From an uncultured Phascolarctobacterium sp. (GTDB taxonomy: Bacteria > Bacillota > Negativicutes > Acidaminococcales > Acidaminococcaceae), in contig CASEIL010000002.1 in assembly GCA_949288065.1 (NCBI GenBank), positions 1-64,000 of the forward strand: a stretch of DNA of 64,000 nt, given 5' to 3'. Under the pieces are notes generated by a model. That model had not been told where the DNA came from and did no database searches. It was given only the letters and a program-made list of their open reading frames with translations. Position numbers and translations under genes: made by a program. This document shows positions 15,742 through 49,256 of this stretch, in pieces (the first letter of the stretch is position 1; each line of letters opens with the position of its first letter).

Positions 15742-16617
15742 ATGCCTGTATGTACCGTGGGGCTGTTCCCCAATATGCAAAAAGAAAAGGTTTGCGCCTG
15801 CCTGCCGCAGATTTTAGGGCTGCTGAATAAATACGGCTTTAAAACGCTGCTGCCGCAGGAGCTTGCGCCAGCCGGAGCGCCGTGCTACAATACGGCAGAT
15901 GCGGAGAGCTTAACGCAGCTTGACGCGGGTATATCGCTTGGCGGTGACGGCACCTTTTTGCAGATGGCGCGCTTTCTTTCGCCTTTAAAAATACCGGTGT
16001 TCGGCGTAAATTTTGGCAAGCTGGGCTTTTTGGCGGAAACAGAAATGGGCGATTTTGAAGCCGCCGTTGCCAAACTGGCGCGGCACGAGTTTGAGCTGGA
16101 AGAACGCAGCCAGCTGAAGGCAACTGTTATCCGTGGCGGCGAACCTGTTGTGCAGGCGCACGCGCTGAACGATATGGTTGTTGCCAAAGGGCATTTCAGT
16201 AAGCTCGCTCATCTGGAGCTGAAAATTAACGGCAAACATTCCGGTATCTATGCTGCGGATGGTTTGATTGTAGCGACGGCAACCGGCTCCACGGCTTATT
16301 CATTATCGGCCGGCGGGCCCATGGTACACCCAAGCCTTGATGTGTCAATCATCACGCCAATTTGCGCGCACGCCTTATACACCCGCCCGCTGATTATACC
16401 GGGCAACAATTTGATAGAAATAACGGCAGTGCCGCCGTATGAGGAGCTTTTGCTGTCGGCAGACGGCGAGATTGCTTCGGCGGTAACCGAAAACGATATT
16501 ATACGGATTGAAAAAAATCCGGAGCCTGTCAGGTTAATCCGTTTAAACGGCAGAAGCTATTACGAAACCTGGCAGCAAAAATTAATGCGCAGCTGCGGAA
16601 ATGAGGGAAGCAAATGA
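15742..16617 (+). CDS. nadK: NAD kinase
   Basis: 291 residues. It phosphorylates NAD to NADP. The catalytic GGDGTFLQ motif (about residue 67), the NFGKLGFLAE segment and the ATATGSTAYSLSAGGP motif are all intact. An AAGGTGA site lies just upstream of ATG 15742. Its stop overlaps the argR start (ATGA), indicating coupled translation. Confidence 0.95.
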   Translation: MPVCTVGLFPNMQKEKVCACLPQILGLLNKYGFKTLLPQELAPAGAPCYNTADAESLTQLDAGISLGGDGTFLQMARFLSPLKIPVFGVNFGKLGFLAETEMGDFEAAVAKLARHEFELEERSQLKATVIRGGEPVVQAHALNDMVVAKGHFSKLAHLELKINGKHSGIYAADGLIVATATGSTAYSLSAGGPMVHPSLDVSIITPICAHALYTRPLIIPGNNLIEITAVPPYEELLLSADGEIASAVTENDIIRIEKNPEPVRLIRLNGRSYYETWQQKLMRSCGNEGSK

Positions 16618-17087
16618 ACGAAGAAGTATCTGTAAAGCAATTAAAAACCAACCGCCATGCTAAAATTAAAAGCATTATCGAATCGCATAAAATAGAAACG
16701 CAGGACGAGCTGGCAGCGGCACTGCGCGCCAGCGGCATTGAAGTAACGCAGGCCACCGTGTCGCGCGATATTAAAGAGCTGATGCTGATTAAAGTGCCGG
16801 ACGCTGCCGGGCGTTATTATTATGCCTTCCCAAAGGAGCAGAACGCTTTGATGAACGCCGGAAGGATGGAGCGCGTTTTGCAGGATTCCGTGCTGAACCT
16901 GCGCGCTGGCGGCAATTTGGTGGTAATACACAGCCTGCCGGGCGCGGCGTCTTCCGTAGCGCTGGCGCTGGATTACATGAAATGGCCGGAGGTGCTGGGC
17001 ACCGTTGCCGGTGACGATACGATTTTTGTTGCGATTGACAAGCCGGAAAACGCGGCTGTATTTATCGGCCGCTTTGCCGAAAAATAG
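16614..17087 (+). CDS. argR: Arginine repressor
   Basis: 157 residues. The N-terminal winged helix (IKSIIESHKIETQDELAAAL, then VTQATVSRDIKELM) and the C-terminal arginine-binding hexamerisation domain, with the GTVAGDDTIFVA motif, are both present. Expected to repress arginine biosynthesis genes when arginine is abundant. No arginine gene lies in this window. It overlaps nadK by four bases. Confidence 0.95.
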   Translation: MNEEVSVKQLKTNRHAKIKSIIESHKIETQDELAAALRASGIEVTQATVSRDIKELMLIKVPDAAGRYYYAFPKEQNALMNAGRMERVLQDSVLNLRAGGNLVVIHSLPGAASSVALALDYMKWPEVLGTVAGDDTIFVAIDKPENAAVFIGRFAEK

Positions 17088-19379: not shown

Positions 19380-19408
19380 TTGACAAATCTTTGCCAATGG
19401 TAGATACT
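19380..19408 (+). promoter_or_regulatory. Probable original promoter of the rib operon, now cut off
   Basis: TTGACA (19380-19385) and GATACT (19403-19408) are spaced by 17 bases. It reads straight into the truncated FMN aptamer copy at 19430. Before integration of the mobile element this would have placed the promoter about 20 bases upstream of the riboswitch and ribD. It now points into the element. Confidence 0.55.
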
Positions 19409-19429
19409 TATTGTAGTAATTTAATACAG

Positions 19430-19464
19430 GCCTTTGGGGTAGGGAGCATTTCCCAACCGGCGGT
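19430..19464 (+). repeat. Left attachment repeat (attL): truncated FMN aptamer copy
   Basis: A 35-base segment matches 24454-24488 at 31 positions. GCCTTTGGGGTAGGG is identical, then four bases differ (AGCA here, TTAG at the right), then TTTCCCAACCGGCGGT is identical. It contains the P1 5' strand and P2 hairpin of an FMN riboswitch, but the downstream sequence does not continue as an aptamer. Confidence 0.85.
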
Positions 19465-19757
19465 TGCCTGTCTGAAAATGTTAAACAAGACCAGCACTAT
19501 TAATTAACAGACTGTTGCCGTCTTGTTCCCAAAAGTCAACACTGTAAATCCAGTATACAAGCGGCTTTACAGGCTTTTCAATTTAATATTTTTGTAACTG
19601 AAGTAGTATTGAACTATAAAAAGTTTGATACTACTTTTTGTATTTTATGGCACCCTACCAAGTAGGTTAGTTTATTGATTTTTAATAAGCAATACCCAAC
19701 TATTTATACAAAATATAAGTATTACAAATAATATTAAACTGGAAGGAGGTGTAAAAC
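19465..19757. other. Left non-coding end of the element
   Basis: No gene. It contains an 8-bp inverted repeat AACAAGAC (19484-19491) with GTCTTGTT (19520-19527), the terminator at 19601-19641, and the short dyad CCTAC-CAA-GTAGG (19654-19666). The 7-mer CCCTACC at 19653-19659 is the reverse complement of GGTAGGG in the attachment repeat, so an integrase arm site is conceivable. A GGAAGGAGGTG site precedes the integrase. Confidence 0.4.
19601..19641 (+). terminator. Terminator at the left end of the element
   Basis: AAGTAGTATTGAAC (19601-19614) pairs with GTTTGATACTACTT (19623-19636), a 14-bp stem with two G-T pairs, followed by T-rich sequence. It should stop transcripts entering from the old rib promoter before they reach the integrase. 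Confidence 0.65.
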
Positions 19758-20675
19758 ATGCTGTATTATGAAGCCGTACAAATTTTTTATAGAGATTGTG
19801 TAGGGCGTATGTTGTCGGAGCGTACTATAGAAAACTATTCCGATTATATAACTGGCTTTGGAAATTACCTGCAAAGGGTAAATAAAAGCAATATTGAGGA
19901 TGTTACAAGGGATGATGTATTAGACTACTTTGCTTTTAAGCGTAAAACCTGTTCGGAAACTACAATAAAACATAACTTCATAGCTATCAGAGCGTGTTTC
20001 AAATGCCTTGTAGCCCGTCACATAATACCTATAAACCCTTTGGATGACATACCGAAACCACGAGTGCCCAAAAAGATAATACAATCTTTTAATAGGGAGG
20101 AAGTACAGGCAATACTAAACGCCTTTGATAAAAATACTTTTACAGGGTTTAGAAACTACGCAGTCATGAGCATTTTATTCAGCACAGGTTTAAGAAAAAG
20201 CGAGTTGCTGCAAATGAATGTTTCTGATGTGTATTTAGATATTGACACTATGAAAGTAAACGGAAAGGGCAATAAAGAGCGTTATGTACCCATTAGCCCC
20301 GTATTGCACCGTGTAATTGTTACATACTTAAAAAAGCGTAAAGAATATTTAAAAGAGTGCAAATTAGCCGATAGGGATATATTTATAGTAAGCTGTAGGG
20401 GCGGCAGGTTAACTAAAGGCGGTTTAGGTACTGTATTTGCTAAACTAAAGCAATCTAAAAAACAGTGGGCACACCGTGTATCAGCGCATACATGGCGGCA
20501 CACTTTTGCAAAATTCTTTTTGTTAAACGGCGGCGATATATTCTCATTACAAAAGATATTGGGGCACGAGGATATAGAGAGTACCCGTATTTATATTGAA
20601 CTGACAAAAGAGGAAATACGCCTGCAAAATGACAAATACAATCCATTAGATAACACAAAATGGCAATATTATTAA
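19758..20675 (+). CDS. Tyrosine recombinase (integrase)
   Basis: 305 residues. The N-terminal SAM-like core-binding domain spans about residues 1-100 and the catalytic domain about 110-290. All active-site residues are present: R146 in TGLRKSEL, the lysine in NGKGNKER (about 170-173), H244 and R247 in HTWRH, H270 in ILGHED and the nucleophile Y279 in TRIYIEL. A strong GGAAGGAGGTG site precedes ATG 19758. It resembles XerC/XerD-sized recombinases more than long phage integrases with arm-binding domains. Lying at the left end of an element flanked by direct repeats, it is the obvious enzyme for integration into and excision from the FMN riboswitch. Confidence 0.93.
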   Translation: MLYYEAVQIFYRDCVGRMLSERTIENYSDYITGFGNYLQRVNKSNIEDVTRDDVLDYFAFKRKTCSETTIKHNFIAIRACFKCLVARHIIPINPLDDIPKPRVPKKIIQSFNREEVQAILNAFDKNTFTGFRNYAVMSILFSTGLRKSELLQMNVSDVYLDIDTMKVNGKGNKERYVPISPVLHRVIVTYLKKRKEYLKECKLADRDIFIVSCRGGRLTKGGLGTVFAKLKQSKKQWAHRVSAHTWRHTFAKFFLLNGGDIFSLQKILGHEDIESTRIYIELTKEEIRLQNDKYNPLDNTKWQYY

Positions 20676-20697
20676 ACAATGAAAGAAGGATTTTTAA

Positions 20698-21453
20698 ATG
20701 TTATATTTGAATATTGATATTGAAAAAGAAGTTAATAAATTTCCGCTTAACGAGCGTCCTGTAATGATAACGGTTAACGGTGTAAACATACCACGGTATA
20801 GCTACAATATGATAGATATGCCGAAGGTAGAGCAAAGTTTACAAAACGGTGAATATACCTTTTGCAACATTATAAATGCCGTTGAGAATGAATATTATTT
20901 TACCGCTCGTGAATGTTTTTTAAAGCAAATACAGGAGCATGGTTTATCTGTTAATGAACAGTACAGACTTTTAGGTGAATGTATGGTAGCATTTAGGGCA
21001 ACTTCTGGCGGCAGCGGGGATATGTGCCATGACTTTGCTGTATACAGGGCGGCTCAGATACATAACGCTGAATTAGCTGCGCTGTTATGCAAAGGTACAA
21101 TAAGCGGAATTAATGATGTATACTGTTTAAGCAGTGATAAAAATATACTTTATTACCTTGATGACGGTAAAGATTATGACTGTTGTGTGTTCCGTGCAGA
21201 TTATGAAATTAGAGAATACAGCCGCCAAAACATTGATATTACAGCAAGTGTGTTTGATGAGTTACAGTATAAGTTTGAGGAACTGAGAAAATTTAATACA
21301 TTCGGTGAGTTGGCGCAGGAAGTACCTTTAAATTGCCTTGAAGAATACATACAGGAGGCTTTATGGGGCTATGTAGGCGAAGATAACCCAAATACTACGA
21401 TAAAGGTAGCACCAACAGCAGCACAGTATTTGCGGCATGAGGTACACAGTTAA
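20698..21453 (+). CDS. Unknown 251-residue element protein
   Basis: Not recognised. It starts 23 bases after the integrase with a GAAAGAAGGA site and is likely co-transcribed with it. The protein is acidic and soluble, with no membrane segment or signal. Three parts can be seen: a strand-rich N-terminus (VMITVNGVNIPRYSYN, then EYTFCNIINAVENEYYF), a central segment with a glycine/serine-rich turn followed by a helix (FRATSGGSGDMCHDFAVY), and a C-terminal helical part rich in glutamate (FDELQYKFEELRKF, LEEYIQEALWGYV). Eight or so cysteines are scattered without a metal-binding spacing. Possible roles such as excision, replication or defence are guesses. Confidence 0.75.
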   Translation: MLYLNIDIEKEVNKFPLNERPVMITVNGVNIPRYSYNMIDMPKVEQSLQNGEYTFCNIINAVENEYYFTARECFLKQIQEHGLSVNEQYRLLGECMVAFRATSGGSGDMCHDFAVYRAAQIHNAELAALLCKGTISGINDVYCLSSDKNILYYLDDGKDYDCCVFRADYEIREYSRQNIDITASVFDELQYKFEELRKFNTFGELAQEVPLNCLEEYIQEALWGYVGEDNPNTTIKVAPTAAQYLRHEVHS

Positions 21454-21516
21454 GTTGTGCCCCCCTTGATGTGCACAGTAAAGGCGGCTTTAATACACAA
21501 AGGCAAGGTGAATATA

Positions 21517-21591
21517 ATGCAGCGTTTTAAAAAGTTTGTGTACGAGGTTATAGATAATATTATAGCTATATTGGAATGGCTGAGGTTTTAG
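21517..21591 (+). CDS. Tiny 24-residue ORF
   Basis: ATG 21517 is preceded by AAGGTGAATATA, a good ribosome site at normal spacing. The peptide is short, basic at the N-terminus and amphipathic (MQRFKKFVYEVIDN then IIAILEWLRF). It overlaps the next ORF in another frame. The strong ribosome site is the main support; function unknown, possibly a leader or membrane-active peptide. Confidence 0.4.
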   Translation: MQRFKKFVYEVIDNIIAILEWLRF

Positions 21592-21758
21592 ATTTATACA
21601 TAACTTTTGTGTTGAACCTTTTGGTAAATATTTGTACCATTGCACTGATGTTAAGTACCAATCTTAAAATAAACACAAAAAAGCAAATGGGTACACAAAA
21701 AGCAGGTACAAAGTGCAGTAAAGTTTTGTGTTTTATAGGTAATACAAAAAATCAATAA
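21576..21758 (+). CDS. Possible 60-residue membrane protein
   Basis: One hydrophobic segment (YITFVLNLLVNICTIALML, residues about 8-26) is followed by a basic, polar tail. ATG 21576 lies within the 24-residue ORF in a different frame and lacks a clear ribosome site, so it would need coupled translation. The hydrophobic-then-basic layout is protein-like, but AT-rich DNA gives such segments by chance. Confidence 0.3.
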   Translation: MAEVLDLYITFVLNLLVNICTIALMLSTNLKINTKKQMGTQKAGTKCSKVLCFIGNTKNQ

Positions 21759-22154
21759 CACAATAGTACTTAATGCTGTTTTAGTATTGAGTTATATAGT
21801 AGCTAAGTAGTAACTATGAGTTTACACAAGTTACAGCAAAGGTGTGTTTTATTGATAGTGTTTTATAAAACAGATAAAAATTTAATAAAGGCAGTTTAAT
21901 GGCAACAAAAGTAACCACGGTATACCTGTTGATTTAATAATAACAAGTAAACCGTGGTTTTCTTTTTGTTACCTTTATGTGAATTTAAGGAAGGTTAAAG
22001 TATAATCATTAATAATTATCATTTATCAATCCTTAATTATAAAATTAAAGTAACTTTGTGTTTCTTATATATGTATTATTTATATAAGAAAGTCTGTAGA
22101 AGCAGGCACAGAGCAGGTGTATTTCTAAAAAGGGAAAAAAGCGGGGCTGAAATT
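21759..22154. other. Intergenic region between element genes
   Basis: No convincing gene. It contains the terminator at 21913-21968 and an AT-rich inverted repeat, TTTCTTATATA (22061-22071) with TATATAAGAAA (22081-22091), near the 3' end of the minus-strand helicase gene. Confidence 0.5.
21913..21968 (+). terminator. Terminator for the element's plus-strand genes
   Basis: AACCACGGT (21913-21921) pairs with ACCGTGGTT (21951-21959), followed by TTTCTTTTT. An inner TGTT/AACA pair may extend the stem. Confidence 0.75.
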
Positions 22155-23486
22155 TTACCCTTTTTTGTGTTCCTTTGCTGTATGTAGCCAAGACTTAAAT
22201 TGCATACGCAGGCGGTGTGCAGGTATGTATACGTACACTTTATTTGCACATGCCGTGTTGCGGATACTTGAACGCCACAAAAACTGTATAAAAGCAGATA
22301 AAGCGTACTCTTTTTTATTAACCGTTATGCCTCTTTTAGAAAAGAATGTAACGATATTAGGATTAGGAAATTTATCGCATACAAAAGCAACGGCATTACA
22401 GTTTATAAATTCGTTTGTGGCTCTTGTTGTGAGTGCTATCCAGCGTTTAGGGCTGACACCTCTACCAGTAAGGCAGTTTTTAAAATCCTTAAAGGTAGTC
22501 CAAAAGTAACCTGTAGTTTGCCCTTTGGGTACACCATAACGCAGAAAGCCACGCAAGGCGTTGTGCAGCTTACGGGCAGCAGTACTGTTTTTATTACTAC
22601 AATTCAATCTAAACCAGTTTTTAGATAGTGTGTAATCATCATCAATAAGATTATATTTATCATCATCACAAATAACAATTCTGTCTAATCCTTTTGGGTA
22701 TGCCTCAACAAAACCTGCTGCAATATCGCCGCCGCTGTTGATGTGGTAATACTCAATAGTAAAACCATACAGCCTGCAATAATAATCAAAATAACTCTCA
22801 TGCAGGCGGTATGTGCTGATGTACACATTATCAAAGCAATACCAAATAGAAGGTTTTACCACAGCAATAACCTGTTTATCGTTATTTATACTGTACAGGT
22901 CGAGATTATCAAAGCACTTACGGAAACCTTCAAACAGACCACGCCTGCATCGTCCTGTATATTCTTTATCATCATTCCAATAAAGCTGCCCTGTAGTTTC
23001 ATTCATCAACAAATAACCCTGCGCCCTCAGCATGGCATAGTCCTGCGGATTAAGTTTATTTAATTCCTGTAGTTCCCTGTTGGCAACATTTTTGGGAGTG
23101 TTTTGGTCAATACAATCCAATATTACAGTAGGCTCCTCATCAATAATTAGTGTATATTCGTAATCACCATTAGACAACAAGGCTTTAACTTCGCTGTCAA
23201 AAAGAGTACACAGGGCATGTGTACAGCAGATGTTTTCACCTGCAATGATGAGTTGTTTTAACTCATGCAGTTTTGATGTTCCCTTTTGGTCGCCTAAAGG
23301 CTGCATACAGTTTGTATTGGCACATATCCGCTGTACTTCTGAAAGTAGTGGAGTGAGTACCAAAAAGCGGTTAAAGTTATCGGCAGCAGATTGTGCAGCA
23401 TTTATCATTTTAATTAAAGCTGTTGTCTTTCCTGCGCCTGTTGGGGCGTCAATTACCTTAAAAGCGATATTTTCTTTTGTGTTCAT
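22155..23486 (-). CDS. SF2-type helicase/ATPase of the integrated element
   Basis: 443 residues from the ATG at 23486, chosen because GGAAGGAAAG lies just upstream; the frame is open 26 codons further. Walker A is APTGAGKT (residues 14-21), Walker B is LIIDEEP (113-119, DEE variant of DEAD/DEAH), and a motif VI-like QFLWRSSIRN lies at 401-410, preceded by LTTRATNEF. Together these indicate two RecA-like lobes of a superfamily 2 helicase. The middle, about residues 125-330, is specific and aromatic-rich with no known domain recognised. It faces the integrase operon and is read from the structured right end of the element. A role in the element's replication is plausible; defence is an alternative. 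Confidence 0.75.
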   Translation of the reverse strand: MNTKENIAFKVIDAPTGAGKTTALIKMINAAQSAADNFNRFLVLTPLLSEVQRICANTNCMQPLGDQKGTSKLHELKQLIIAGENICCTHALCTLFDSEVKALLSNGDYEYTLIIDEEPTVILDCIDQNTPKNVANRELQELNKLNPQDYAMLRAQGYLLMNETTGQLYWNDDKEYTGRCRRGLFEGFRKCFDNLDLYSINNDKQVIAVVKPSIWYCFDNVYISTYRLHESYFDYYCRLYGFTIEYYHINSGGDIAAGFVEAYPKGLDRIVICDDDKYNLIDDDYTLSKNWFRLNCSNKNSTAARKLHNALRGFLRYGVPKGQTTGYFWTTFKDFKNCLTGRGVSPKRWIALTTRATNEFINCNAVAFVCDKFPNPNIVTFFSKRGITVNKKEYALSAFIQFLWRSSIRNTACANKVYVYIPAHRLRMQFKSWLHTAKEHKKG

Positions 23487-23544
23487 TTTTCTTTCCTTCC
23501 TTTTCACTACACAAATTTGAAAGAAATGATGTACCTTTCCTTCA

Positions 23545-23585
23545 TAATGTGTGACAGTAAACATTTGTCTACTTATGAGTGACAG
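23545..23585. repeat. Two 13-base direct repeats upstream of the helicase gene
   Basis: TAATGTGTGACAG (23545-23557) and TTATGAGTGACAG (23573-23585) differ at two positions and lie 28 bases apart. They are 60-100 bases upstream of the helicase start, so they could be operators or iterons. Confidence 0.45.
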
Positions 23586-23830
23586 ATAAGGTTATTGTGC
23601 GTTTAAATTCGTTTTAAGCGTGTTTATAAATGAAAGCTTATAAAGTTATACACAAAAGATTTAAAAACGCTTACAGGCGAAATATGGCGGTGATGTATGT
23701 GGCGGCGAAGGGAGAATGTTATAGTATTGCGAGTTTTATGTAAATTATTAATGTTTATTTTATTATATTGATTAAATGGGTAATCAGCGTAGCAATACCA
23801 GTAAAGCAGTTTAACATTAAATATAAAACA

Positions 23831-23890
23831 ACCGCCTTTGCTGTAACTAATAGCACCAATAAGTAAACCAATAGTCAACGGCAAGGCGGC
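23831..23890. other. Long imperfect hairpin in the element
   Basis: ACCGCCTTTGCTGTAACTAA, starting at 23831, pairs with a segment ending at 23890 (CAACGGCAAGGCGGC and bases before it) over about 22 positions with a few mismatches, enclosing a loop of about 15 bases. There is no T run, so a terminator is unlikely. Confidence 0.5.
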
Positions 23891-24093
23891 TGAAAGTAAA
23901 TAAAAATAATAAAATTGATTGTGTATAAAAATATAAACATAAACCTTTGTTTGTATTTTAGCTATGCATAGATGTTGAAGTATGTGTGTAATCTTAAAAA
24001 GTATAATAAAAATAGTACACAAGTTTTCAACAAGTGTACTAAATGGAATTTTATGCAGTTGTTAATGAATAAAAACACAAAATAAAAGCAATA

Positions 24094-24121
24094 ACGTCCG
24101 ATAATAAGGATTATGTTTATC
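24094..24121 (+). other. dif-like XerC/XerD site in the element
   Basis: The 11-base left arm ACGTCCGATAA is identical to that of the chromosomal dif candidate at 49229. The centre is TAAGGA and the right arm TTATGTTTATC shares TTATGT with XerD arms in general. The 11-6-11 layout is that of dif sites. The centre differs from the chromosomal TATATA. Confidence 0.65.
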
Positions 24122-24363
24122 TTGTTTTAACCTCATTTTATGGCAGTTTTCTATAATAAAATAAAAAAGGAAAGCCTGACTATTACATTTGTTATTTACA
24201 GTATAAATAATACAATCCCGTGTGTCAACTTTTGTATCACATATAAAAATTTCAAAATAAAAAACAAAAAGCAGCAAAGTTTTAACAGAGAATTAGAAAC
24301 CAAACGGGGCAATGGGGAAACAATATTATTTCAAAGATATATATAAGGGCAAACGAAAATTTT

Positions 24364-24391
24364 TTGTAAAATTCACTTTTAAAGTTAATAT
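24364..24391 (+). promoter_or_regulatory. Candidate outward promoter supplying the rib operon
   Basis: TTGTAA (24364-24369) and TAATAT (24386-24391) with a 16-base spacer lie inside the element, about 60 bases upstream of the rebuilt FMN aptamer. It would replace the promoter stranded at 19380. Confidence 0.5.
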
Positions 24392-24453
24392 ATTAAATTG
24401 ATAAATGCCTTAAAGTGCGCAAATATGCAGTATTGCTGACTTTTTGGTGTTTA

Positions 24454-24488
24454 GCCTTTGGGGTAGGGTTAGTTTCCCAACCGGCGGT
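24454..24488 (+). repeat. Right attachment repeat (attR), within the intact FMN aptamer
   Basis: Matches 19430-19464 at 31 of 35 positions; the four differing bases (TTAG here) fall in the loop of the P2 hairpin. The repeat ends within the conserved ACCGGCGGT of the aptamer. Confidence 0.85.
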
Positions 24489-24558
24489 ATAGTCCGCGAG
24501 CGTAAGCACGAACCGGTGCAATTCCGGTACCGACAGTATAGTCTGGATGAGAAAAGGC
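24454..24558 (+). ncRNA. FMN riboswitch (RFN element) controlling ribD-ribE-ribBA-ribH
   Basis: Conserved aptamer blocks occur in order: GGGGTAGGG, CCCAACCGGCGGTA, AGTCCGCGAGC, ACCGGTGCAATTCCGGTACC, then CGACAGTATAGTCTGGATGA. The closing stem P1 is GCCTTT (24454-24459) with AAAGGC (24553-24558). A terminator hairpin follows at 24574, so FMN binding should stop transcription before ribD. The 5' part of the aptamer is also the right attachment repeat of the mobile element, so some of these bases were probably supplied by the element. Confidence 0.95.
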
Positions 24559-24573
24559 AGCAAAATGATGTTT

Positions 24574-48419: not shown

Positions 48420-49082
48420 TTACATCATTCTAAAAACAGCTATTACCTTACCGATAACCTGGATATTATCGCCGCCTACAATCGGCTTATAGGCATCGTT
48501 TTCCGGCTGCAAACGCACACAACGCAGCTCGCGGAAATAGCGTTTTACAGTAGTTTCCTCACCATCGATAAGAGCAACGACAATATCGCCATTGTTGGCA
48601 AAATTCTGCTTGCGAACCACAATATAGTCGTGGTCTAAAATACCGGCCTTAATCATGCTGTCGCCGGTTACTGAAAGCATGAACACATCCTCATCGCATC
48701 CCAGTAAATCAAGTGGGATGGGATAGGTTTCTTCGATATTTTCTACCGCTAAAATAGGCATACCGGCTGTAACGCGCCCAACAAGCGGCACAGGCACAAC
48801 GGTTTTATTCTTCCACTCATAATTATCGTGCGTCAGCTCCAGAGCACGCGGCTTGGAAGGGTCGCGCTGTAAAAAGCCGTATTCTTCTAATTTATGCAAA
48901 TGGTTATGCACGCTGGCGCTGGAAGATAACCCGACTGCCTGGCCAATTTCACGCACGGCAGGCGGATAGCCTTTGGTTTTTACGCATTCGCGGATGTAGT
49001 TTAAAATTTGGCGTTGGCGCGGGGTCAGCATATCTTCGGTAATCGGTCCTTCAAAACCGGAAAAGCGTTTCTGTCTGGCCAT
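48420..49082 (-). CDS. lexA: SOS repressor LexA
   Basis: 220 residues. The N-terminal winged helix (TPRQRQILNYIRECVKTKGY, then SSSASVHNHLHKLEEYGFL) binds operators. The C-terminal self-cleavage domain has the scissile A106-G107 in GRVTAGMPILA, S142 in VTGDSMIKAG and K180 in EETTVKRYF. An AGGAGGC site precedes ATG 49082. It has its own promoter with an operator-like repeat, indicating autoregulation, and its 3' end converges with the plus-strand block. Confidence 0.96.
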   Translation of the reverse strand: MARQKRFSGFEGPITEDMLTPRQRQILNYIRECVKTKGYPPAVREIGQAVGLSSSASVHNHLHKLEEYGFLQRDPSKPRALELTHDNYEWKNKTVVPVPLVGRVTAGMPILAVENIEETYPIPLDLLGCDEDVFMLSVTGDSMIKAGILDHDYIVVRKQNFANNGDIVVALIDGEETTVKRYFRELRCVRLQPENDAYKPIVGGDNIQVIGKVIAVFRMM

Positions 49083-49119
49083 TGATAGAGCCTCCTGAAA
49101 GTTTATTTGTTATACAATT

Positions 49120-49160
49120 ATTATAACAGTTATTTGCAGAGTAGTCAAAACATTCGTTTG
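49120..49160 (-). promoter_or_regulatory. lexA promoter with LexA-type operator
   Basis: Read on the minus strand, TTGACT (49143-49148) and TATAAT (49120-49125) are 17 bases apart. CAAAC-GAAT-GTTTTG (49146-49160) overlaps the -35 and is a one-mismatch version of the perfect palindrome at recA. Confidence 0.75.
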
Positions 49161-49228
49161 CTGTTTGGCAAAATAAATAAAGGCAGGTGCATAGCGCTAG
49201 CTGCCTTGTGGAAATCATATAATAAATA

Positions 49229-49256
49229 ACGTCCGATAATATATATTATGTAAAAT
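49229..49256 (+). other. Chromosomal dif site (XerC/XerD)
   Basis: The 11-6-11 layout is ACGTCCGATAA, centre TATATA, then TTATGTAAAAT. The last two parts are nearly those of Bacillus subtilis dif (centre TATATA, arm TTATGTAAACT), and the arm layout also fits E. coli dif. Gene direction reverses beside it: plus up to 48.2 kb, minus from 48.4 kb on. That is the pattern expected where the two replichores meet. Confidence 0.85.

What the first reader, a model, noticed from the sequence alone, without database searches (positions are those of the whole stretch)
24094..24121. dif-like site inside the integrated element
The left arm is identical over 11 bases to the chromosomal dif candidate 25 kb away, the right arm begins TTATGT, and the spacing is 11-6-11. 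Elements that exploit XerCD (IMEX) or plasmids with Xer resolution sites carry such modules. Because the element also has its own integrase, the site more likely resolves multimers of an excised circle; an alternative is past or optional XerCD entry. The centre differs from dif, which would limit recombination between the two.
Basis: partly seen in the sequence, partly recalled or inferred. Interest (0 to 1): 0.75.

Follow-up and report, generated by a model that had tools for sequence, protein, structure and literature searches.

The report
Host-recombinase site inside an integrated element
A 5-kb mobile element with its own integrase also carries a near-copy of the chromosome's dimer-resolution site (dif); comparison with relatives suggests that the host's XerC/XerD enzymes use it to cut joined copies of the element back into single circles, while its altered centre keeps it from recombining with the real dif 25 kb away.

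Summary
The site is real: ACGTCCGATAA-TAAGGA-TTATGTTTATC at 24094-24121, 11-6-11. About 1e-6 exact-arm matches are expected by chance per element. The dif at 49229 is also real: conserved across Acidaminococcaceae, near lexA, with a GC-skew flip there. The element (19430-24488, 5,024 bp) sits inside the FMN riboswitch of ribD; four congeners show the empty site.

(1) All four helicase elements found in the genus carry the site. Each has TG[AT]ATAA at about -28 and -171 on the XerC side, even where the module is inverted. That resembles the accessory sequences of plasmid sites such as cer and psi. The host has ArgR and PepA. (2) In the order, 11 of 13 extra dif-like sites with non-dif centres lie within 10.4 kb of a tyrosine integrase (P about 2e-14), several in satellite-like elements. 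Two small Macrococcoides plasmids with the same helicase family also carry such a site.

Best reading: a host XerCD site that reduces multimers or concatemers of the element to monomers, with a diverged centre that isolates it from dif. XerCD binding and recombination are inferred, not shown. IMEX-type entry at dif is disfavoured.

The parts
24094..24121 (+). dif-like Xer site: XerC arm 24094-24104 (ACGTCCGATAA), centre 24105-24110 (TAAGGA), XerD arm 24111-24121 (TTATGTTTATC)
23922..24093 (+). putative XerC-side accessory module; TGTATAA at 23922-23928 (-172) and TGAATAA at 24066-24072 (-28), both at matching distances in the three other elements of the genus
19430..24488 (.). integrated element with its two end repeats (5,024 bp from repeat start to repeat start)
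   Evidence: end repeats; empty site in four congeners
19430..19464 (+). left end repeat: first 35 nt of an FMN riboswitch aptamer, truncated
24454..24488 (+). right end repeat, the start of the complete FMN riboswitch of ribD
19758..20675 (+). tyrosine integrase, Xer-like (305 aa)
   Evidence: PF00589; XerD/XerC models match but below their cut-offs
20698..21453 (+). 251-aa protein of unknown function, 81% identical in G018
22155..23564 (-). helicase-like protein, phrog_2467 (YonV family)
49229..49256 (+). chromosomal dif (ACGTCCGATAA TATATA TTATGTAAAAT), in direct orientation with the element's site
24450..24562 (+). complete FMN riboswitch (RF00050) that serves as the integration target
16614..17087 (+). 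host argR/ahrC gene, a candidate accessory factor

Best explanation
The site is a Xer recombination site of the small-plasmid type, carried by an integrative element that also has its own integrase. The integrase moves the element in and out of the FMN riboswitch upstream of ribD. Once excised, or after arrival in a new cell, the element probably replicates with the help of its YonV-family helicase and forms multimers. Host XerC and XerD would bind the arms of two copies of the site on one multimer and recombine them, giving monomers. A roughly 170-bp module on the XerC side, with two TGWATAA motifs, would restrict the reaction to copies on the same molecule, as ArgR and PepA do at cer. The centre TAAGGA differs from the dif centre TATATA at three of six positions, which suppresses recombination with the directly repeated dif 25 kb away, an event that would cut a 25-kb segment out of the chromosome. 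Shown by sequence: the arms, the conserved position, the XerC-side module, the element with its empty site, and the host genes. Inferred: XerCD binding, replication as a circle, multimer formation, ArgR/PepA control.
For: Arms match the host dif far beyond chance. All four helicase elements found in the genus have the site. Between orthologues the arms agree at 19/22 positions but the centres at 1/6, which fits recombination between identical copies rather than with dif. Two motifs sit at fixed distances on the XerC side in all four elements, including one whose site is inverted relative to its element; small-plasmid Xer sites have about 200 bp of accessory sequence there (PMC11724359). The host has XerC/XerD-like genes, ArgR and PepA. 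The same helicase family is on two circular plasmids that each carry one strong dif-like site. Across the order, 11 of 13 non-dif-centre sites lie within 10.4 kb of an integrase.
Against: No direct evidence of XerCD binding, excision, replication or multimers. The XerD arm departs from dif in its outer five positions. The more distant relatives L057 and L060 lack a site. The XerC-side double motif was found only in this genus, and a full ARG box is not significant. The motif was picked after seeing the data, although an unbiased 5-mer test agrees.
Confidence: 0.72

Rival explanations
1. IMEX-type entry: the site is, or was, an attP by which host XerCD insert the element at the chromosomal dif, as an alternative to its own integrase.
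For: The XerC arm is identical to dif and the first two centre bases (TA) agree; VGJphi-type IMEX integrate with homology only on the XerC side of the centre (PMC5357621).
Against: The element has an integrase and sits in a different site with its own end repeats. Relatives' centres (CATGTG, CAAGGC, CCACCC) have no XerC-side homology with TATATA. No element was seen at dif in the genomes examined.
Confidence: 0.07
2. The element's own Xer-like integrase, not host XerCD, acts on the site (a second recombination or regulatory site of its own).
For: The integrase is of the short Xer-like type; XerD and XerC models score 196 and 194 bits, below cut-off.
Against: The arms are those of the host dif, and the same arms occur with unrelated integrases (L071-L081) and on plasmids with no annotated integrase. 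The end repeats bear no resemblance to the site.
Confidence: 0.08
3. Relic: a site kept from a plasmid ancestor that no longer works.
For: The outer half of the XerD arm is diverged, and relatives L057 and L060 live without a site.
Against: Arms and the spacing of the XerC-side motifs are kept between elements whose other non-coding DNA is largely not alignable.
Confidence: 0.08
4. Exchange module: the site lets elements, or genes between sites, be swapped, like pdif modules in Acinetobacter.
For: The inner four centre bases of the two resident elements agree (TAAGGA and CAAGGC).
Against: Each element holds one site, not a flanked module. The two centres differ at both outer positions. The genes and integration sites of the two elements are different.
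Confidence: 0.05

Closest known systems
Xer recombination sites of small plasmids (ColE1 cer, pSC101 psi)
   Same: Two 11-bp arms around a 6-8 bp centre, one per replicon, centre unlike dif, conserved sequence of about 170-200 bp on the XerC side
   Different: Carried by an element with its own integrase that is found inserted in the chromosome; the accessory motifs are new and the proteins that bind them unknown
Macrococcoides plasmids pMiCAN82c and p19Msa0936-1
   Same: YonV-family helicase and one strong dif-like site with a non-dif centre on a small circle
   Different: No integrase annotated; free plasmids
IMEX (CTXphi, VGJphi, TLCphi, GGI)
   Same: A dif-like site with host-matching arms on mobile DNA
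   Different: IMEX use the site to enter dif and generally lack an integrase; this element sits in a riboswitch by its own integrase
pdif modules of Acinetobacter
   Same: Extra dif-like sites with variable centres on mobile DNA
   Different: pdif modules are genes flanked by two sites; here there is one site per element
PICI/PICMI phage satellites
   Same: Small integrase-bearing elements of 5-12 kb; several site-bearing relatives have satellite-like gene sets
   Different: No Xer site has been described for them in the papers read; the window element itself has no packaging gene that we could recognise

Membership tests
Plasmid-type Xer recombination site | Two 11-bp arms matching host dif around a 6-8 bp centre | tested here: met
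   17/17 conserved arm positions, 6-bp centre
Plasmid-type Xer recombination site | One site per replicon, centre different from dif | tested here: met
   One site in the element; TAAGGA against TATATA
Plasmid-type Xer recombination site | Accessory sequence next to the XerC arm | tested here: met
   Two motifs at fixed distances on the XerC side in four elements; 68% identity there against 47% on the other side between orthologues. Function of the sequence not tested
Plasmid-type Xer recombination site | Accessory proteins (ArgR or ArcA, PepA) bind it | not testable with these tools
   Genes for ArgR and PepA are present; a full ARG box is not significant
Plasmid-type Xer recombination site | Lies on a replicating circle | tested here: inconclusive
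   Helicase family shared with circular plasmids; no reads to show the circle
Plasmid-type Xer recombination site | XerCD-dependent recombination | not testable with these tools
   Needs an assay
IMEX | Integrated at the chromosomal dif | tested here: not met
   Inserted in the FMN riboswitch, 25 kb from an intact dif
IMEX | Depends on host XerCD for integration, no integrase of its own | tested here: not met
   Tyrosine integrase at 19758-20675 next to the end repeat
pdif module | Genes flanked by two dif-like sites | tested here: not met
   A single site in the element
PICI-like phage satellite (the window element) | Integrase plus phage-responsive regulator, replication and packaging genes | tested here: inconclusive
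   Integrase and helicase only in the window; a terS-like gene occurs in the site-bearing element L078, and D5-type or DnaB-like replication proteins in L076, L078, L080

The most novel reading that the evidence does not exclude
Small integrative elements and phage satellites in Acidaminococcaceae, and perhaps many tailed phages, routinely carry one host-XerCD site with a private centre. The host's chromosome-dimer machinery then turns their multimers or packaged concatemers into single copies, while the private centre isolates them from dif and from each other. This would answer how concatemer-packaged satellites end up as single integrated copies.
Probability: 0.35. Interest if true: 0.78.

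Novelty: new variant of a known kind. Interest (0 to 1): 0.6.

Why it matters
Xer sites are known on plasmids, where they resolve dimers, and on IMEX, where they serve integration. A Xer site with an accessory-like module on an element that has its own integrase separates the two jobs: the integrase for entry and exit, host XerCD for keeping the element single. The authors of the PICMI satellite paper (PMC10803314) leave open how a satellite packaged as a concatemer comes to be integrated or kept as one copy. A Xer site is a simple, testable answer for elements that have one. The private centres also show how such elements could avoid rearranging the host chromosome at dif.

Tried and rejected
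Chance match: rejected. IMEX at dif: no element found at dif; the two dif copies of G023 are two diverged versions of one lexA locus, probably a mixed assembly. A dif-like site in SPbeta: only 55-85 kb was scanned, nothing above chance. The search for related loci with the helicase in genome contigs and viral contigs found nothing; the genome search was more sensitive. Site in the more distant helicase loci L057-L070: none. An ARG box as such: not significant. Literature: no paper in the held library was found to describe dif-like sites in integrase-bearing satellites; the library lacks most subscription journals, so this is weak evidence of novelty.

Full report
CHECK OF THE OBSERVATION. The sequence at 24094-24121 is ACGTCCGATAA TAAGGA TTATGTTTATC. 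A second copy of the left arm lies at 49229, in ACGTCCGATAA TATATA TTATGTAAAAT. With up to three mismatches in the 17 fixed arm positions, only three places in the 1.83-Mb draft genome fit: this site, the 49229 site, and one on contig C20. With the base composition of the element, 1.2e-6 exact hits are expected, and the best score in 2,000 simulated elements was 14 of 17. The right arm shares TTATGT with dif but only 7 of 11 positions in all.

THE CHROMOSOMAL DIF. The 49229 site is the true dif. ACGTCCGATAA-TATATA-TTATGT, or a close variant, occurs in nearly every genome of the family, usually once. The reversed control pattern gave one hit in 63 genomes at up to one mismatch. In relatives the site lies beside or near lexA, as here. 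GC skew is positive up to 48 kb and negative after it, as expected at a replication terminus.

THE ELEMENT. Repeats of 35 nt at 19430-19464 and 24454-24488 (89% identical) bound the element. The right copy is the start of a complete FMN riboswitch (RF00050, 24450-24562) upstream of ribD. Four congeners have the same locus uninterrupted: both flanks of the window align across it and overlap by about 36 bp. The element is 5,024 bp long; the 4-kb bin that lies wholly inside it has 35% GC against about 50% around it. It encodes a tyrosine integrase (19758-20675), a 251-aa protein of unknown function, and a helicase-like protein of phrog_2467. The helicase family includes SPbeta YonV and proteins on plasmids of Acinetobacter, Bacillus and Macrococcoides. 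The element therefore looks like an integrative replicon; whether it is a phage satellite is open.

CONSERVATION OF THE SITE. G018, another species of the genus, has the orthologous element in the same riboswitch (integrase 84%, 251-aa protein 81%, helicase 72% identical). Its site is AAGTCCGATAA CATGTG TTATGTATAAC, in the same place and orientation. Arms agree at 19 of 22 positions, the centre at 1 of 6. A second, 11.4-kb element in the window's own genome, on contig C20, and its relative in G014 have helicases 35% identical to the window's and sit in the 5' end of rnpB. They carry ACGTCCTATAA CAAGGC TTATGTATAAT and GTGTCCGATAA CCACCC TTATGGTAAAT. In simulations each of the four sites was equalled in at most 2 of 1,500 runs. 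Two related elements in other genera, L057 and L060, inserted in tRNA genes, have no such site.

THE XERC-SIDE MODULE. In all four elements TG[AT]ATAA occurs at -172, -172, -170 and -172, and again at -28, -28, -29 and -29, counted from the XerC arm. On the XerD side it was found once, in L054. In L056 the site points the other way relative to its element, yet the motifs keep their place on the XerC side, so the module moves as a unit. None of 20,000 simulations of three of the elements shared even one such position. That motif was chosen after seeing the data. A test without choosing a motif (5-mers shared at matching offsets) gave 4 observed and never 4 in 2,000 simulations; the downstream side gave 0. 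Between window and G018, the 200 bp on the XerC side are 68% identical and the 200 bp on the XerD side 47%. This is the layout of Xer sites on small plasmids, which need about 200 bp next to the XerC arm, bound by ArgR or ArcA and PepA (PMC11724359). The genome has ArgR (inside the window, 16614-17087) and PepA. The motif resembles an ARG-box half, but a full ARG-box match is not significant, so the protein is not identified.

THE SAME THING IN OTHER ELEMENTS. Across the order, 13 dif-like sites with at most one arm mismatch and a centre unlike that genome's dif were examined. Eleven lie within 10.4 kb of an integrase other than XerC/D; 3.8% of the DNA lies that close, P about 2e-14. The true dif sites checked lie at least 29 kb away or on contigs without such an integrase. 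A class-wide scan of 380 genomes gave 12 exact-arm sites with a non-T at centre position 5 and no control hit; two of these, G035 C4 and G060 C85, appear to be the chromosomal dif of those genomes because they lie near lexA. Five of the elements end in tRNA repeats (Thr, Trp, Pro, Pro, Val). Their genes are satellite-like: D5-type or DnaB-like replication proteins, phage-type repressors, a terS-like gene in L078. L077 contains a tape-measure gene and looks like a prophage remnant. In nine elements with both ends known, the site lies 0.25-1.8 kb from the end opposite the integrase, never beyond 18% of the length. The XerC-side double motif is not seen in these other elements, so their accessory sequences, if any, differ.

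PLASMIDS AND VIRUSES. Two small circular Macrococcoides plasmids with the same helicase family (10.5 and 11.9 kb, no integrase annotated) each hold one strong dif-like site, 21 of 22 arm positions (against arms of the Staphylococcus type, taken from memory), with centres TATGAA and CATACA; shuffles reached 17. In IMG/VR the exact arms with any centre hit at least 120 stretches (capped), the reversed pattern 3. None of the 119 sites extracted has the centre TATATA, against 15 of 81 in genome contigs. The family matches of the long genes on those contigs are led by tailed-phage genes, above all the large terminase. So dif-like sites with private centres are not confined to this family, though the role in each virus is unknown and some may be IMEX-type.

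MECHANISM. Most likely the site lets host XerCD reduce multimers of the element to monomers. Comparison favours this over entry at dif: arms are kept while centres drift from dif and from each other, which suits recombination between identical copies but not with dif. The element has an integrase and a different attachment site. The site stands in direct orientation 25 kb from dif, so a dif-like centre would risk deletion of the segment between them. The element's own Xer-like integrase as the actor is a minor rival, because the same arms appear with unrelated integrases and on plasmids with none annotated. Not shown: binding, recombination, excision, replication and multimers.

NOVELTY. The site belongs in kind with plasmid Xer sites. 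The new part is its regular presence on elements with their own integrase, with an accessory-like module in this genus. No paper in the held library was found to describe this. The PICMI satellite paper leaves the single-copy question open and does not mention Xer or dif.

Noticed in passing
19380-19464 and 24450-24562: The element's target is an FMN riboswitch. The element carries the first 35 nt of the aptamer (68 nt in G018), so ribD keeps a complete riboswitch, while the native promoter (TTGACA-17-GATACT, 19380-19408) is left at the other end with a truncated aptamer next to the integrase. ribD must now be transcribed from a promoter in or through the element.
   Followed up: partly
G000:C20 (L055:1441-12959) and L056:537-11487: A second element family uses the 5' end of rnpB (RNase P RNA) as target, with a 99-107 nt repeat that includes the promoter. 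In the window's genome the only rnpB match is 146 bp long and below cut-off, against 351-353 bp in G014 and G018: an assembly error or a deleted middle.
   Followed up: partly
IMG/VR loci L094-L213: At least 120 viral stretches carry exact dif arms with very varied centres, against 3 for the reversed pattern. Many come from tailed phages by their terminase genes.
   Followed up: partly
24105-24110 and L055:12355-12360: The two elements resident in one genome share the inner four centre bases (TAAGGA and CAAGGC), while the elements in other genomes do not. Unexplained; possible exchange between them.
   Followed up: no
24014-24040: Near-perfect inverted repeat AGTACACAAGTTTTCAACAAGTGTACT in the XerC-side module, largely conserved in G018. 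Might be an origin or a protein-binding site.
   Followed up: no
48420-49256: dif lies next to lexA here and beside or near lexA in several relatives across the order, a stable neighbourhood at the terminus.
   Followed up: partly
21907-21965: Strong inverted repeat (AACCACGGTATACCTGTT / AACAAGTAAACCGTGGTT) between the 251-aa gene and the helicase; could be a terminator or an origin feature.
   Followed up: no
L071, L076, L078, L080, L081, L054, L055, L056 and window: In all nine elements with both ends known, the dif-like site is near the end opposite the integrase. No reason is known.
   Followed up: partly
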